Assembly (NCBI GenBank): GCA_012026835.1
Contig: VEPN01000015.1
Location: 1-64,000 of the forward strand
Length of the DNA: 64,000 nt
Reading direction: 5' to 3'
Source of the DNA: Candidatus Methanoperedens sp.
GTDB taxonomy: Archaea; Halobacteriota; Methanosarcinia; Methanosarcinales; Methanoperedenaceae
In this document: one piece after another, positions 5,471-17,031 of the stretch
How the letters are laid out: every line of letters starts with the position of its first letter
How positions within the stretch are numbered: position 1 is the first letter of the stretch
Made by a program: the position numbers and the translations under genes
The notes under the pieces: model-generated
Told to the model about the DNA's origin: nothing
What the model saw: the letters and a program-made list of their open reading frames with translations, nothing else
The model's database searches: none

Positions 5471-6097
5471 TTAATCTTTCGATAAAAGATATTCCTGCCA
5501 TTGTGCCTTCATTGCTTTCGTCATTACCGGATAGACAATATGGTGGCGAAAAGGTTCGATCAGTTTTAAATACACTTTTCCATAAATTCCTCTTGGAATT
5601 ACATAAATAGCCAGCGTTGCCGTGTAATAATTATCATTTTTTTTAATCCAGCCGACATGTATGAGACCGTGTACCGTGTCATTAGAAAGTTCATGCAAAC
5701 TTTCATCCTCAAATAAATAAACAGGGCGAAATTCCAGAACAGTATTTTTGTCTTTAATGGCCATTCCCACTTTACTTTTTTCAAGATCCTGGCTGCTTAG
5801 CCGGCTCTTAACACTCGTCTCCCGGCAGCCGGGAATTGGCAAGATATTAATGTTCCTGTCAAGGGGAAAAATTTTGTCCATCCAAAATCGCAGGGTAAAA
5901 AGAATACTGACTAATGTTGTTTTTGTTTGCATTTTCTTAAATGTTTCAAATGCTATTCTATAAAAAGCCTGGAAATTTTCGGTCTTGGAATTATTCGCAG
6001 CGATCGGTATTTCCCAGACATCCCATAAGATAAAATCTTTCCCAATTTCATTTACTTTCCATGGACGCGCGGAATGGGTTTCTTTGTCAATCATCAT
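5471..6097 (-). CDS. DUF2867 family protein
   Basis: A 208-residue soluble protein. The C-terminal segment YVIPRGIYGKVYLKLIEPFR followed by HHIVYP is the hallmark of DUF2867, a domain often attached to or encoded near SDR-type reductases. An internal TATLAIYV strand precedes it. Function unknown; possibly lipid-like ligand binding, by analogy with related folds. No reductase is adjacent here. It shares the strand and low GC of its neighbours and is likely part of the same acquired block. Confidence 0.75.
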   Translation of the reverse strand: MMIDKETHSARPWKVNEIGKDFILWDVWEIPIAANNSKTENFQAFYRIAFETFKKMQTKTTLVSILFTLRFWMDKIFPLDRNINILPIPGCRETSVKSRLSSQDLEKSKVGMAIKDKNTVLEFRPVYLFEDESLHELSNDTVHGLIHVGWIKKNDNYYTATLAIYVIPRGIYGKVYLKLIEPFRHHIVYPVMTKAMKAQWQEYLLSKD

Positions 6098-8714: not shown

Positions 8715-9044
<330 letters not shown>

Positions 9045-11476: not shown

Positions 11477-11807
11477 CTATTTGTTTAGTTTTTGACTGTA
11501 AATCTCTGTTATCTTGATGGCTGTCACAGGGCACTGCGCCTCGCATGCCCTGCAAAATATGCATTCAGGTTCATTGGCCGGGTCGGACTTTTTCTGCGAT
11601 TTAGGATGCCCCGGCGATCCTACCCACTCGAATACCCCGACCGGGCAGACAGATACAGATGCCGTCGCCTTCGCAGCAATCGTGGTCTACCGCAACGTGG
11701 GTTCCGTGGATGCCGAGTTTTTCCGGGGGTTTGACTTCTCCCCTTACCTTGTGTCCTTTGTGTTCACCTGTTATGGGCTTTTTCATGAAATCCTGGTCTA
11801 TAGGCAT
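11477..11807 (-). pseudogene. Second ferredoxin copy, frameshifted
   Basis: Close paralogue of the ferredoxin at 8715-9026, with the same start MPIDQDFMK, the same His-rich extension and the same upstream sequence. A two-base deletion (ACAGATACAG here, ACAGAGATACAG there, plus strand) inside the first cluster motif turns CISVCPVG into an out-of-frame CICLPGRG. The downstream second-cluster sequence is intact but out of frame, and the original stop has been lost (TAC in place of TAA), so the corrected frame would run to 11477. Either a recent pseudogene or an assembly error; the clean conservation elsewhere favours a recent event. Confidence 0.8.
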
Positions 11808-12148: not shown

Positions 12149-12452
12149 TTCTTATACCTCCGGTGATTTTTAAATCAATATTGGTCGGAAGGGTAGTTAT
12201 AATATGAAGAAAATTTCAGCAGTGAAATGTAAAAACATTATTGGAAGAAGAAATTTGATTCAACAATTCTCAGAATTACTTCAAGATGGCAAAATATAAA
12301 AATGCTATACAAACTAATAGAAAAAGTATAAAGTGTATAAAACCTTATGAAAGCATTAGTATTATGGAAGCCATGCCAATATAATCTCTCTGTAGTATTT
12401 CATTGGTTTTGGGTATAAATGAGCGGAAAAAGTCCTTTATTTAGAGATTGAT
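12149..12452 (+). other. AT-rich intergenic region upstream of the restriction cassette
   Basis: No gene seen. The sequence becomes markedly AT-rich here and stays so to about 16.25 kb, which marks the left edge of the McrBC-type cassette. GGGTATAAATGAG at 12412-12424 is the best TATA candidate for the cassette, about 30 bases before the first start codon. Confidence 0.4.
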
Positions 12453-13232
12453 ATGAACTTGAATGATGAACAAATCAGGGATTTACTGAATTGGTTTAAT
12501 ACCGAGTCGGAAACAAGAAAAAGTATGAGTGGGGGGAGAAAGGAAGCTCTTATTGAGAATTCCAAATGGATTCAACCCGATATTATCAATACTTTGCCTG
12601 ATGATGAACTCGAAAAAAAGTACATCGAATATTACAATAGTGGTGGAGGAAAACAGGCCCTTAACCGGATTAATCGAGATAAAATAATTCGTAATAAGCA
12701 GAAGTTCAGAGAAATGGTATCTTATTTATTAGATGAAAATATTGATATTGGCACGCGCTTGACGGATGTGGTTGAAGGAAAATATCACATTGATGGAGTT
12801 GGAAAAGGTTTAGCCACATCATTTCTTATGGACTTCAATCCTAAGAAATATTGTATATGGAATGAGAAGACCGAAAAAGGACTTTCTGTAATAGGTTGGG
12901 ATCCATATTCAAAAAAAGATTCATTGGGGGATAAATATTCAAATATCCTAAAAGCACTATATAAACTAAGAGATATGGCACCAGGATTGAATATGGAATT
13001 GGTCGATATCGATCTTCTTCTTCACACAATTTCATCAGAAAATGATGGAATTGAAGCTGTCAAAAGAATTAGCGGTGTAAAGTCTTTAAAGTTTGGACGT
13101 GAAATGGAAGCAAATACCTCAATTTTGTTACTTTCTAACAAATCTCAGATCATTCTCTATGGCCCACCTGGTACAGGTAAAACATACAATGCTAGAATAA
13201 TCGCTGTGAAATTTATTGGAGAAGTAGATTAA
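12453..13232 (+). CDS. McrB-like specificity module 1 ending after Walker A
   Basis: A 259-residue protein. Residues 1-215 form an N-terminal domain of the kind fused to McrB-type NTPases, including VEGKYHIDGVGKGLATSFL and FNPKKYCIWNEKTEKGL. Residues 237-244 are a perfect Walker A (GPPGTGKT) in the context SQIILYGPPGTGKTYNA. Translation stops 15 residues later, so Walker B, the McrB signature and the arginine fingers are missing. The rest of the AAA+ domain is not in the next ORF but in the one after it (13875). Could supply target recognition as a separate subunit, or be an inactivated older version replaced by module 2. No frame joins it directly to the rest. Confidence 0.75.
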   Translation: MNLNDEQIRDLLNWFNTESETRKSMSGGRKEALIENSKWIQPDIINTLPDDELEKKYIEYYNSGGGKQALNRINRDKIIRNKQKFREMVSYLLDENIDIGTRLTDVVEGKYHIDGVGKGLATSFLMDFNPKKYCIWNEKTEKGLSVIGWDPYSKKDSLGDKYSNILKALYKLRDMAPGLNMELVDIDLLLHTISSENDGIEAVKRISGVKSLKFGREMEANTSILLLSNKSQIILYGPPGTGKTYNARIIAVKFIGEVD

Positions 13233-13233
13233 A

Positions 13234-13872
13234 ATGTCTAATAATGCGAAGTGGTGGAAAATCTCTCCTGCTAGGGGAGGAAAGGATTGGGATGATTGGC
13301 TACAAGGAAAATATTGTTTGCTATATAATTGGGAAGAGAAGCCATATTATAGCAAGATAAAAAAAGATTTAAAAAAGAATTACAAAAATCCTGATGAGTT
13401 TCTTAAGGAGCCAGATTTTAAGGGAGAAAAATGGCCTCTGCAATTAAAAACTTTTGTTTGGGACGTGAATGAAGGTGACATTGCTTTTGCTTATAAACAA
13501 GGCGAGTTTGTTGGTGTTGGAAAGGTCGAAAGCTACTATTATAATGAAACGAAAGGTCATTTAAGAAATATTGATTGGAAAGAAATTAAATTGAATTTAG
13601 ATAAAACTGAAATAATAAAAATTTTAAATATCGCAGCTGCTGGAACAATCAAAAATATAGACATATATAGAAATGAGTTGATGAAATTAATTAAAGAAAA
13701 CAACCTTAATTTAACTTATTTATTAATGGAAAATTCAACTTTTGATGAGACAATAGATTTGCTCAGCCAAAAATCCCAAATTATCCTTTATGGTCCACCA
13801 GGTACAGGGAAGACTTATAAGGCAAGGGAATTTGCTGTTAATTTTATTAAAAATCACATTAAGGAGGACTAA
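13234..13872 (+). CDS. McrB-like specificity module 2 ending after Walker A
   Basis: A 212-residue protein that starts one base after module 1 ends, with GGAGAAG as a plausible ribosome-binding site. The N-terminal domain differs entirely from module 1: KWWKISPARGGKDWDDWL, FVWDVNEGDIAFAYKQGEFV and GVGKVESYYYN are typical of an EVE/PUA-like modified-base-binding fold. It is followed by SQIILYGPPGTGKTYKA with Walker A at 187-194. Like module 1 it ends soon after (about 18 residues). The stop lies two bases before the next start codon, which has its own AAGGAGG. So the break falls at the same structural point in both modules, after the P-loop helix. Confidence 0.75.
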   Translation: MSNNAKWWKISPARGGKDWDDWLQGKYCLLYNWEEKPYYSKIKKDLKKNYKNPDEFLKEPDFKGEKWPLQLKTFVWDVNEGDIAFAYKQGEFVGVGKVESYYYNETKGHLRNIDWKEIKLNLDKTEIIKILNIAAAGTIKNIDIYRNELMKLIKENNLNLTYLLMENSTFDETIDLLSQKSQIILYGPPGTGKTYKAREFAVNFIKNHIKED

Positions 13873-13874
13873 AG

Positions 13875-14834
13875 ATGGATGATAATCTAAATAAAAAATT
13901 TAATGAGTTTAAACAGAAAGGGTATATTGAATTTATTACCTTCCATCCTTCGTACTGCTATGAAGAATTCATGGAGGGTATAACAGTCCACACGGGAAAT
14001 GAAGGGGAAACTACTGATAGTGTCAAATATAAATTGAAGTCTGGGATTTTTAAAACGCTCTGTAAAAGAGCTTTAGGATCAGCAATCGGTTTTAATAAGG
14101 AAGAAATCGAGACTAAAACATGGGAAAACATATATGAAGCGTATCTTGAAAAGTCTAAAAATCAAGAAATTAACTTTGTATCGGCACAAAAATACATTTT
14201 GATTATCGATGAAATTAATAGAGGAGACATTTCGAAGATATTCGGCGAACTGATTACTCTGCTCGAAACAGACAAAAGGTTGGGAGCTGACAATGAATTA
14301 ACTGCAACGCTCCCATATTCAAATGATATATTTGGTGTACCTCCAAATCTATACATAATTGGAACTATGAATACGGCTGACAGGAGCATTGCCTTGATAG
14401 ATGTGGCCCTAAGAAGGAGATTCGGTTTTGCTGAAATGACACCTGATTTTTCAATTCTGGAAGAAGAGCATATTGAAAAGAACAAAGACAAATTAGAGAA
14501 AAGTGGAGTATATGGCCTTCTTTTAGAATCCAAGAAAGCGTTGGAAAAAATAAATTCGAAGATATGCGACGAGAAATCAATCGGTAGAGATAAACAAATT
14601 GGGCATTCTTTTTTATTCCATATAGAGACTCCTTCTGAATTGATAATGGCATGGCATAATGAGATACTACCCCTTCTCGAAGAATATTGTTATAGTGATT
14701 ATAAAAAAATCAACAAAATACTTTTTACTAAAGAAGAAGATTCAAAATGGATAAAAAAGAAAGAGGGTATTGTTGGATTCGAGAATATTGAGGAACTTAA
14801 TAGTTTTCTTGAAAAAATAAATGCTTTAGGTTAA
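13875..14834 (+). CDS. mcrB: McrB-like AAA+ core lacking Walker A
   Basis: A 319-residue protein. It begins with the segment that follows the P-loop helix in McrB (YIEFITFHPSYCYEEFMEGI, residues 17-36). It has Walker B ILIIDEINRGD (108-118), the McrB GTPase signature TMNTADRS (164-171) and the sensor/arginine-finger region DVALRRRFGF (176-185). It has no P-loop, so it must combine with a module that brings one. The start is supported by AAGGAGGACTAAAGATG. The following mcrC starts one base after its stop. McrB hydrolyses GTP to drive McrC along DNA containing modified bases. Confidence 0.85.
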   Translation: MDDNLNKKFNEFKQKGYIEFITFHPSYCYEEFMEGITVHTGNEGETTDSVKYKLKSGIFKTLCKRALGSAIGFNKEEIETKTWENIYEAYLEKSKNQEINFVSAQKYILIIDEINRGDISKIFGELITLLETDKRLGADNELTATLPYSNDIFGVPPNLYIIGTMNTADRSIALIDVALRRRFGFAEMTPDFSILEEEHIEKNKDKLEKSGVYGLLLESKKALEKINSKICDEKSIGRDKQIGHSFLFHIETPSELIMAWHNEILPLLEEYCYSDYKKINKILFTKEEDSKWIKKKEGIVGFENIEELNSFLEKINALG

Positions 14835-14835
14835 T

Positions 14836-16122
14836 GTGACAGAAGAACCGATAGAAATTCCGGAATATAATTCGGAAATTATAAAAAATTTTAATGAAGT
14901 ACAAGACTGGGATTATTTAGAAAAACTATGTTTTAAATCTCATGGAAAAATTCCCTATAAAATATCTAAAAATCGGACGGGAAATGTTTGTATTGAAAAT
15001 ACATCATATTCTGGTATCATCCAACTTGAAAATGTGCGAATTCATTTCTCGACAAAGGTCAAAACAAATCTATTTTATATGCTCAGTTTCTTAAAATCTG
15101 AGGACGATTTTTTGTTTGATCCAGAAATATCAATAGAGATCAAAGAAGGGGGTAATTTTTTTGATATTATAGGCCGAATGTTTCTTAATGAATTGGAAGA
15201 AATAATCGAAAAAGGTCTTCTAAAGAAATACGTCTCAAAGCACGAAAATGTCAATTTTCACAAAGGGAAACTATCTATCAAAGACCAAATACATAACCAC
15301 ATAAATAATAGACCCAAGTTTTCTTGTATTTATGGGGATCTAACAATCAATAATTTGGAAAATCAGATTATTTTGAGAAGTTTGAATCTTCTTATACCAA
15401 TGATAAGGTTCAATGAAGCACTGAAAGCGGATTTAATTCGTCATGAATACATTTTGAAAGATTTTATTGAGTTAGTTGATGCTTCGCCAAATGATTGCAC
15501 TAAGATTCATTTCAATCGATTAAATGACTATTACTCCGCCATAATTCAATTTTCAAAATTAATTTTGGAGGAAAATTTCATTAGATCAGTTTATAAAGGC
15601 GCATCAAGAGGCTTTAATTTTGTTGTTAATATGAACAAGGTTTATGAAGATTTTATTACTCAGATGGTTAAGGAAGTAGTAGATGATAATTTTGATGATT
15701 TTGAGGTCGTAAGTCAATCTAAGTTCGATAATCTTGTAAAAGAAAGAAGAATTGTTACGATTCCAGATATAATTTTAAAACGTGAAGACTCATATCCACT
15801 CATAATCGATGCCAAATATAAACGGGAAGATAAAAATGCTGATTATTACCAAATTATTGCATATAGTCTCGCAATACCTAAAGCTAAGGCTTGTTGTTTA
15901 ATTTACCCACATACTGAATTTATTAATATTGAAAGAGAGCCTCTTACTCTTCGGCGCGATATTACAAACCCTGGACGGGACGACATAAAACTGTATGCCA
16001 AGACTATAGACTTACATATAAAGGATGATTTAGAATTTGATGATTTTGTTAAGGTAACAAAGATTAAGATTAAAGGCATAATTTCGGAGTGTTTACGCGA
16101 GGAACCATCCATAGTAAGCTAA
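14836..16122 (+). CDS. mcrC: McrC-like endonuclease subunit
   Basis: A 428-residue protein with a GTG start one base after the mcrB stop. The N-terminal part is the wedge/stalk region that contacts the McrB hexamer. The C-terminal PD-(D/E)xK nuclease has D311 in TIPDIILKRED and D325-A-K327 in PLIIDAKYKRED, then YYQIIAYSLA, the usual order for DUF2357/McrC nucleases. All catalytic residues are present. It would cleave DNA when translocating McrB complexes collide. Last gene of the cassette. The low GC of all four genes and the repeats that follow suggest acquisition by transfer. Confidence 0.9.
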   Translation: MTEEPIEIPEYNSEIIKNFNEVQDWDYLEKLCFKSHGKIPYKISKNRTGNVCIENTSYSGIIQLENVRIHFSTKVKTNLFYMLSFLKSEDDFLFDPEISIEIKEGGNFFDIIGRMFLNELEEIIEKGLLKKYVSKHENVNFHKGKLSIKDQIHNHINNRPKFSCIYGDLTINNLENQIILRSLNLLIPMIRFNEALKADLIRHEYILKDFIELVDASPNDCTKIHFNRLNDYYSAIIQFSKLILEENFIRSVYKGASRGFNFVVNMNKVYEDFITQMVKEVVDDNFDDFEVVSQSKFDNLVKERRIVTIPDIILKREDSYPLIIDAKYKREDKNADYYQIIAYSLAIPKAKACCLIYPHTEFINIEREPLTLRRDITNPGRDDIKLYAKTIDLHIKDDLEFDDFVKVTKIKIKGIISECLREEPSIVS

Positions 16123-16258
16123 TAATATTCTAATCGGTTTTGAATCCTTTGATTGAAATGAATATTATTCTTTACATAACCTTTCCATAAAGAAAAATTA
16201 TAGTAATTAGCCCCAAAATTTAGCTTGAGTATGCATTACCAGTAGCATATAGTGAACT

Positions 16259-16371
16259 CACCGCAAAGAACGCAAAGTTCGCAAAGATATTGCGGCTAAG
16301 CTTTGCGTTCTTTGCGAACTTTGCGGTGTCTATGTTTAGCCTTTTTCTCCAACAGGTAGCTGGACAATAAG
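16259..16371 (+). repeat. Solo TTTGCG inverted-repeat element with tail
   Basis: CACCGCAAAGAACGCAAAG at the left is mirrored by CTTTGCGAACTTTGCGGTG at the right (16310-16328), forming a hairpin of about 70 bases. It is followed by the tail TCTATGTTTAGCC and AGGTAGCTGGACAATAAG. The tail also occurs at 907-959 (minus) and weakly at 18830-18878. Looks like a small non-autonomous element. Confidence 0.8.
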
Positions 16372-16653: not shown

Positions 16654-17031
16654 TTACAGATTATTAACAAATCTGTTAATTCCATCTTTCATCAATTGGA
16701 CATTAAAGTTCATCAAAATGCCTAATTTTAATCCAGATAATTTTAAATAAGTCAGCAATTGAGCTTTGTGAATTGGCTGGACATCTGCCACTGATTTCAA
16801 TTCAATTATCACTTTTTTGTCAACTATTATATCAACTCGATACCCGCAGTCCAGTCGAATCCCTTTATAAACCACGGGCATGGGTGCTTGTCTTTGAAAA
16901 GAAATCTCTCTTAAAGACAATTCATGACAAAGGCATTCCTCATAAGAAGATTCTAATAATCCTGGCCCCAACGATCTATGTACTTCAATAGCGGCTCCTA
17001 CTATCAATTTTGATAGTTCATTTTCATCCAT
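16654..17031 (-). CDS. GxxExxY family protein
   Basis: A 125-residue protein with the defining motif G24-LLE-SS-Y30 and a PD-(D/E)xK-like core (RVDIIVDKKVIIELKSV, with D and ELK), so possibly a nuclease or nucleic-acid-binding fold. The biological role of the family is unknown. The gene ends in LMNFNVQLMKDGI, as is standard. The start codon stands one base from the right-hand repeat (17033-17060), and the stop lies about 50 bases from the left-hand one, so gene and repeats form one compact unit. No separate promoter or ribosome-binding site is visible outside the repeat. Confidence 0.88.
   Translation of the reverse strand: MDENELSKLIVGAAIEVHRSLGPGLLESSYEECLCHELSLREISFQRQAPMPVVYKGIRLDCGYRVDIIVDKKVIIELKSVADVQPIHKAQLLTYLKLSGLKLGILMNFNVQLMKDGINRFVNNL

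What the first reader, a model, noticed from the sequence alone, without database searches (positions are those of the whole stretch)
12453..16122. McrBC-type cassette with a split AAA+ domain and two alternative N-terminal modules
Module 1 (12453-13232) and module 2 (13234-13872) carry unrelated N-terminal recognition domains, yet both end 15-18 residues after the same SQIILYGPPGTGKTY Walker A segment. The following ORF starts with the McrB segment that comes next, and holds Walker B, the MNTADR signature and the arginine fingers but no P-loop. It has its own AAGGAGG ribosome-binding site, so it looks designed and not a chance frameshift. McrC is intact. The ring could therefore be assembled from half-domains, with either module contributing the P-loop, which would let one cassette have two target specificities. 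Alternatively, module 1 is a dead predecessor of module 2. The first reading would be a new architecture for this family.
Basis: partly seen in the sequence, partly recalled or inferred. Interest (0 to 1): 0.78.

Follow-up and report, generated by a model that had tools for sequence, protein, structure and literature searches.

The report
McrBC restriction with detachable P-loop subunits
In this archaeon, and in at least four unrelated microbes, the motor protein of a DNA-cutting defence system is made in separate pieces: two interchangeable "recognition" proteins each carry the nucleotide-gripping loop that the motor core lacks, so the motor probably works only when a recognition protein plugs into it.

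Summary
Two ORFs with unrelated N-terminal domains (12453-13232, 13234-13872) each end 15 and 18 residues after the same Walker A segment. The next ORF (13875-14834) is the rest of an McrB GTPase (Walker B, MNTADR, arginine fingers) without a P-loop, and an intact McrC follows. It is not an indel or a one-off: four other assemblies (KSB1 bacterium, Syntrophobacterales, Methanomethyliaceae, Methanofastidiosia) have two modules with a ~35-aa P-loop "tag" plus a tagless core broken at the same place. In two of them stops in the gap rule out a frameshift product. In one, a tag sits at the N-terminus of an EVE-domain protein, so the tag is portable. Tags within an operon are mostly saturated at synonymous sites but conserved in protein, so module 1 is not a dead relic. 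Three sister McrBs are continuous, and a module fused in one is free in another. I found no description of this in the papers held. Best explanation (~0.7): the tag supplies beta1, P-loop and alpha1 to the core in trans, building a GTPase ring that can carry more than one recognition domain. Docking, activity and dual specificity are inferred; an AlphaFold test was inconclusive. New variant of McrBC.

The parts
12453..13232 (+). Module 1: recognition-type domain (about residues 1-210) plus C-terminal P-loop tag; 259 aa
   Evidence: domain also occurs fused to a NucS/YhcG-like PD-(D/E)xK nuclease in another archaeon (41% identity) and inside a Salinibacter DUF3578-annotated protein
13122..13229 (+). 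P-loop tag of module 1 (ILLLSNKSQIILYGPPGTGKTYNARIIAVKFIGEVD): pre-P-loop segment, beta1, Walker A, alpha1
   Evidence: alignment A2; own-genome search E 2.2e-19
13234..13872 (+). Module 2: weakly EVE-like domain plus C-terminal P-loop tag; 212 aa
   Evidence: PADLOC PDC-S02 E 7.6e-7 over residues 74-161; similar to the second modules of L006 and L004 (E 2e-5 and 1e-3); no Pfam EVE hit
13753..13869 (+). P-loop tag of module 2 (IDLLSQKSQIILYGPPGTGKTYKAREFAVNFIKNHIKED)
   Evidence: alignment A2; own-genome search E 1.5e-20
13861..13867 (+). AAGGAGG ribosome-binding site of the core, inside the end of module 2
   Evidence: sequence; a GGAGG overlaps the module-2 end in the same way in L002
13875..14834 (+). 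McrB GTPase core without P-loop (beta2 onward, small domain); 319 aa
   Evidence: 48-62% identical to relatives
14202..14222 (+). Walker B IIDEINR of the core
   Evidence: invariant in 8 relatives
14367..14384 (+). McrB signature MNTADR (NxxD)
   Evidence: last residue is K in L005 and L007
14412..14420 (+). RRR, candidate arginine finger/sensor residues
   Evidence: invariant; role from PMC7680126
14836..16122 (+). McrC: DUF2357 plus PD-(D/E)xK nuclease, intact
   Evidence: PF10117 E 1.2e-46; PD and D-x-K residues invariant
12414..12420 (+). TATAAAT, possible archaeal promoter element
   Evidence: read by eye; not tested

Best explanation
This is a McrBC-type (Type IV) restriction system whose McrB GTPase is supplied in trans pieces. 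The core polypeptide has everything from beta2 onward (Walker B, NxxD, arginine fingers, small domain). It needs a ~35-residue tag (pre-P-loop segment, beta1, Walker A, alpha1) carried on a separate recognition subunit. Docking of a tag would fill the gap left by the missing strand beta1 in the AAA+ sheet and complete the GTP site, so only cores loaded with a recognition subunit would be active. Because two subunits carry near-equivalent tags, one ring can carry either or both recognition domains and act with one shared McrC nuclease on more than one kind of target. Shown: separate ORFs, same break in five assemblies of the clade, reciprocal loss and retention of motifs, purifying selection on tags. 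Inferred: docking, GTP hydrolysis, mixed rings, dual specificity, defence role.
For: (1) Same break point in five assemblies: window, L002 (KSB1), L004 (Syntrophobacterales), L006 (Methanomethyliaceae), L008 (Methanofastidiosia); each has two tag modules, a tagless core and McrC. (2) Reciprocity: all five cores keep invariant Walker B, NTAD and RRR though they have no P-loop; all tags keep GPPGTGKT though they have no Walker B. (3) In L004 and L006 the core frame is closed across the gap, so a single frameshift cannot make a fused protein; in the window the two frames share only 7 nt and no slippery heptamer is seen. (4) Tags within one operon: dN 0.13-0.33, synonymous sites mostly saturated. 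(5) In L008 the tag is at the N-terminus of an EVE protein (PF01878 E 9.8e-13), and in L002 one module is little more than a tag (66 aa): the tag is a portable unit. (6) Tags of one operon resemble each other more than tags of other operons at variable positions (0.53 against 0.38, permutation p 0.0009; 0.009 without L008), as expected if fitted to one core, although shared descent is not excluded. (7) L005 carries as a fused N-terminus the module that is free in L007 (55% identity). (8) In Thermococcus McrB, the closest solved structure, the break falls between the P-loop helix and the next conserved strand.
Against: No expression or biochemical data. AlphaFold2 of the L002 tag and core read through as one chain gave a confident core but low confidence for the tag (pLDDT about 41-58), so docking is neither supported nor refuted. 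Only five split examples, all in one clade. Recognition domains of the window are not matched to a solved fold and the module-2 model was poor. L007 has a free tag module beside a complete McrB, where a free tag would have to compete with the built-in one.
Confidence: 0.7

Rival explanations
1. The tag is a docking peptide only: it anchors recognition subunits to the McrB-like ring, but the reconstituted site does not hydrolyse GTP.
For: No activity data; docking and catalysis cannot be separated from sequence.
Against: Complete Walker A motifs are kept in all tags and Walker B, NTAD and RRR are invariant in all cores, which points to a working GTP site. A McrB homologue with very low NTPase activity (PcdA, PMC10602043) shows eroded motifs.
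Confidence: 0.12
2. Module 1, or all free modules, are displaced predecessors: a new N-terminal module was captured at the P-loop and left the old one behind, now without function.
For: L007 has a free module next to a complete McrB, and its orthologue is the fused N-terminus in L005: capture at this point does happen.
Against: It does not explain why the last module is also separate from the core in five loci. All free modules have intact ORFs and conserved tags with mostly saturated synonymous change. L005/L007 module: dN 0.35, dS 1.87, though part of that divergence may predate the break.
Confidence: 0.09
3. A fused McrB is made by programmed frameshift, stop readthrough or slippage.
For: In the window and L002 the junctions are short; L002 module 2 and core are in the same frame across one stop.
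Against: Impossible by single frameshift in L004 and L006, where the core frame opens only downstream of the module stop. Cannot join module 1 to the core. The window core has its own strong ribosome-binding site. The tag is N-terminal in L008 module 1.
Confidence: 0.05
4. Sequencing or assembly error, or a freshly broken gene.
For: A single genome, if seen alone.
Against: Four independent assemblies from other phyla show the same break.
Confidence: 0.01

Closest known systems
Thermococcus gammatolerans McrBC (PDB 6UT3-6UT8; PMC7680126)
   Same: Closest solved relative of this clade's core (phmmer E 1.1e-61 with the continuous L007 McrB; Foldseek E 2.2e-23 with the L002 model); same Walker B, NxxD and McrC partner; modified-base-reading N-terminal domain in front of the GTPase.
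   Different: One continuous polypeptide; P-loop, recognition domain and core are not separable.
E. coli K-12 McrBC
   Same: McrB GTPase plus McrC nuclease in one operon.
   Different: Continuous McrB with DUF3578 domain; its short form (from my own knowledge) lacks the DNA-binding domain but keeps the P-loop, unlike this split.
McrB homologues with insertions in the GTPase domain (census in PMC11090510)
   Same: The GTPase domain tolerates inserted, probably specificity, domains. In several archaeal loci fetched here about 150 extra residues lie between Walker A and Walker B.
   Different: Still one polypeptide; I found no split P-loop subunits described there.
EVE-McrB fusions (PMC7641849)
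   Same: Modified-base readers attached to McrB; L008 module 1 and L007 module 1 carry EVE.
   Different: Here the EVE domain is on a separate protein with only the P-loop piece of McrB.

Membership tests
McrBC (Type IV restriction) | McrB AAA+ GTPase core with Walker B, NxxD signature and arginine fingers | tested here: met
   IIDEINR, MNTAD, RRR invariant across 8 relatives; NCBIfam McrB E 2.9e-34
McrBC (Type IV restriction) | Walker A P-loop in the same polypeptide as the core | tested here: not met
   Core has none; it lies on modules 1 and 2. The system as a whole has all the motifs, so it is filed as a variant.
McrBC (Type IV restriction) | McrC partner with DUF2357 and PD-(D/E)xK nuclease | tested here: met
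   PF10117 E 1.2e-46; PD and D-x-K invariant
McrBC (Type IV restriction) | Modified-DNA recognition domain on McrB | tested here: inconclusive
   Module 1 domain shared with restriction-type nucleases; module 2 weakly EVE-like
McrBC (Type IV restriction) | GTP-dependent cleavage of modified DNA | not testable with these tools
   needs biochemistry
CoCoNuT (CnuB/CnuC) | NxD signature motif | tested here: not met
   Signature is NTAD, i.e. NxxD; definition from PMC11090510

The most novel reading that the evidence does not exclude
An AAA+ motor in which strand beta1 with the P-loop is a plug-in tag on interchangeable target-recognition subunits: completing the nucleotide site itself assembles the machine, and one core plus one nuclease serve several recognition proteins, like a plug-and-socket adaptor system. 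New modules could be acquired simply by gaining a ~35-residue tag at either end.
Probability: 0.5. Interest if true: 0.88.

Novelty: new variant of a known kind. Interest (0 to 1): 0.77.

Why it matters
I know of no AAA+ protein, and found none in the papers searched, in which the P-loop is provided by a separate, exchangeable subunit. If the tags dock as proposed, this couples target recognition to motor activation in a new way. It gives a natural split GTPase with a very short complementing tag, useful for engineering. It also offers a direct answer to how one restriction motor could serve several specificities and gain new ones, and it makes the contribution of single recognition domains within an McrB ring testable.

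Tried and rejected
Frameshift/readthrough fusion: rejected by closed frames in L004 and L006. Dead module 1: disfavoured by tag conservation and recurrence. Recombination cassette joined by identical P-loop DNA: tags within an operon are only 60-76% identical in DNA, too little for easy homologous exchange. Unlinked third tag in the own genome: none; further P-loop hits score far lower. Arthrobacter plasmid hit (H45): a normal continuous McrB. Viral contigs: only distant relatives of the core, and none for the modules or for the L004, L006 and L008 cores. More split cores in wider genome draws: in the phylum draw only the own genome and two continuous sisters, apparently the L005 and L007 genomes, scored as clade members; elsewhere none besides the starting genomes, so the clade is rare. 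AlphaFold2: tag placement uninformative, module 2 poor. Profile search of module 2 in the PDB: nothing.

Full report
Observation. Modules 1 and 2 end 15 and 18 residues after GPPGTGKT. The third ORF lacks the P-loop: it meets the AAA_5 profile only from position 65 and the NCBIfam McrB profile from position 255 of 459, E 2.9e-34, but holds IIDEINR, MNTADR and RRR. McrC is complete (PF10117, E 1.2e-46) with its PD...DAK motif. The core has AAGGAGG 7 nt upstream of its ATG. Base composition by codon position is alike in all four genes.

Recurrence. A search of one genome per species for relatives of the core, followed by an ORF and motif scan, shows the same anatomy in four other assemblies: L002 (KSB1 bacterium), L004 (Syntrophobacterales), L006 (Methanomethyliaceae archaeon) and L008 (Methanofastidiosia archaeon). 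Each has two ORFs with a P-loop segment, then a core with Walker B and MNTADR but no P-loop, then McrC. A profile scan of 107 related loci found 12 tag ORFs without a core: 11 in six loci of this clade and one cut by a contig end. 87 of 95 cores have the tag in the same ORF. The tagless ones are the five split cores, two cut by a contig start, and L113, which has a P-loop of different sequence in the same ORF.

Not a frameshift. In L004 the module-2 stop ends at 5909 and the core frame is open only from 5932; in L006 these positions are 5926 and 5980. In the window the two frames share 7 nt. In L002 one stop separates same-frame ORFs, but that core has its own N-terminal extension of about 150 residues. 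Module 1 could not be joined to the core by any such event.

The tag as a unit. Fourteen tag segments align without internal gaps: xxLLxKKKQIILYGPPGTGKTYxTKxxAVxx, about 35 residues. It sits at the C-terminus of modules with otherwise different domains: DUF2461 in L006 module 1 (E 3.2e-19), EVE in L007 module 1 (E 1e-5), and others without a name. In L008 module 1 it is at the N-terminus, followed by an EVE domain (E 9.8e-13). L002 module 2 is a 66-residue protein that is little more than a tag. Two tags in one operon differ at many synonymous sites (dS saturated or above 1.3) but keep 61-88% of residues, dN 0.13-0.33. Tags of one operon are more alike at variable positions than tags of different operons (0.53 against 0.38, permutation p 0.0009; p 0.009 without L008). 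By eye, the third and fourth residues after the Thr of GKT are the same in both tags of every operon in the alignment printed (AR, TK, TR, AQ, TK, TK for window, L002, L004, L006, L008, L007); this was noticed after the fact and could reflect fit to the shared core or shared descent.

History. The eight closest cores form a supported clade (99/96) with five split and three continuous members; continuous L003 lies among the split window, L002 and L004. The tree does not settle whether there was one split with re-fusions or repeated splitting, so I leave the direction open. L005 carries as a fused N-terminus the 370-residue module that in L007 is a free protein ending after its tag (55% identity; dN 0.35, dS 1.87). 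So modules do move between fused and free states at this point. The clade is rare: in draws of 394, 395, 82, 246 and 200 genomes, only the own genome, the starting genomes and two continuous sisters (apparently L005 and L007 themselves) scored as members.

What the modules read. The module-1 domain (residues 1-207) is 41% identical to the N-terminal part of a 364-residue protein in another archaeon of the same phylum whose C-terminal part is a YhcG/NucS-type nuclease (E 9e-9 and 7e-8). It also occurs in a Salinibacter protein annotated DUF3578 and in a NucS-domain protein among type I restriction genes in Paracoccus. That fits a nucleic-acid targeting domain shared among restriction enzymes (inference). 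Module 2 is similar to the second modules of L006 and L004 and to a candidate defence family, and resembles EVE domains only weakly; no modified base can be named.

Mechanism. In McrB, Walker A contacts the GTP phosphates in cis with Walker B and the NxxD motif, arginine fingers come from the neighbouring subunit, and guanine is recognised by elements just upstream of the AAA+ core (PMC7680126). From general knowledge of the AAA+ fold, beta1, which leads into the P-loop, lies in the middle of the sheet. The break falls between alpha1 and beta2 as judged from the alignment to Thermococcus McrB. A core without beta1 would have an open slot, and the tag contains the missing strand, P-loop and alpha1 and perhaps the guanine-reading segment. 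The simplest account is that tag and core complete each other, as a strand donated in trans, so that GTP binding and ring formation require a recognition subunit. Two tag proteins per operon then allow rings with one or both recognition domains. The reciprocal conservation of half-sites on different proteins is the main argument. An AlphaFold2 run of the L002 tag and core as one chain gave a good core but left the tag at low confidence, so it adds nothing on docking; the model's best match is Thermococcus McrB.

Literature. The large McrBC census (about 34,000 systems, PMC11090510) reports insertions within the GTPase domain, but I found no mention of a separate P-loop subunit in the passages read there, nor in the EVE survey or the structural paper, and text searches for split AAA+ domains found nothing. 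The library holds open-licence papers only, so absence there is not proof.

Verdict. The split is real, conserved and unusual. It is best filed as a new variant of McrBC. Function in trans is likely but untested.

Noticed in passing
8715-9044 (-) and 11601-11807 (-): Two near-copies of a small ferredoxin-like gene (MPIDQDFMK...GEHKGHK). The second copy, just upstream of the cassette, looks frame-broken after about residue 50.
   Followed up: no
16654-17031 (-): GxxExxY-type small protein ([34 protein letters not shown]) directly downstream of McrC.
   Followed up: no
L008 3813-4418: P-loop tag at the N-terminus of an EVE-domain protein; tag nearly identical in protein to that of the next module (28 of 32 residues) but 76% in DNA.
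   Followed up: yes
L006 3442-4899: DUF2461/TIGR02453 domain joined to a McrB P-loop tag, suggesting DUF2461 as a recognition module in a restriction system.
   Followed up: partly
L002 1676-2130 and L008 5251-5950: P-loop-less cores carry their own N-terminal extensions (about 150 and 235 aa) with no Pfam match in the parts scanned, so these complexes may hold a third domain type.
   Followed up: partly
L135 4521-5615: Module-1 type domain fused to a NucS/YhcG-like PD-(D/E)xK nuclease: a likely stand-alone restriction enzyme.
   Followed up: partly
16255-16290: Short repeated GCAAAG units (ACCGCAAAGAACGCAAAGTTCGCAAAG) downstream of the operon.
   Followed up: no
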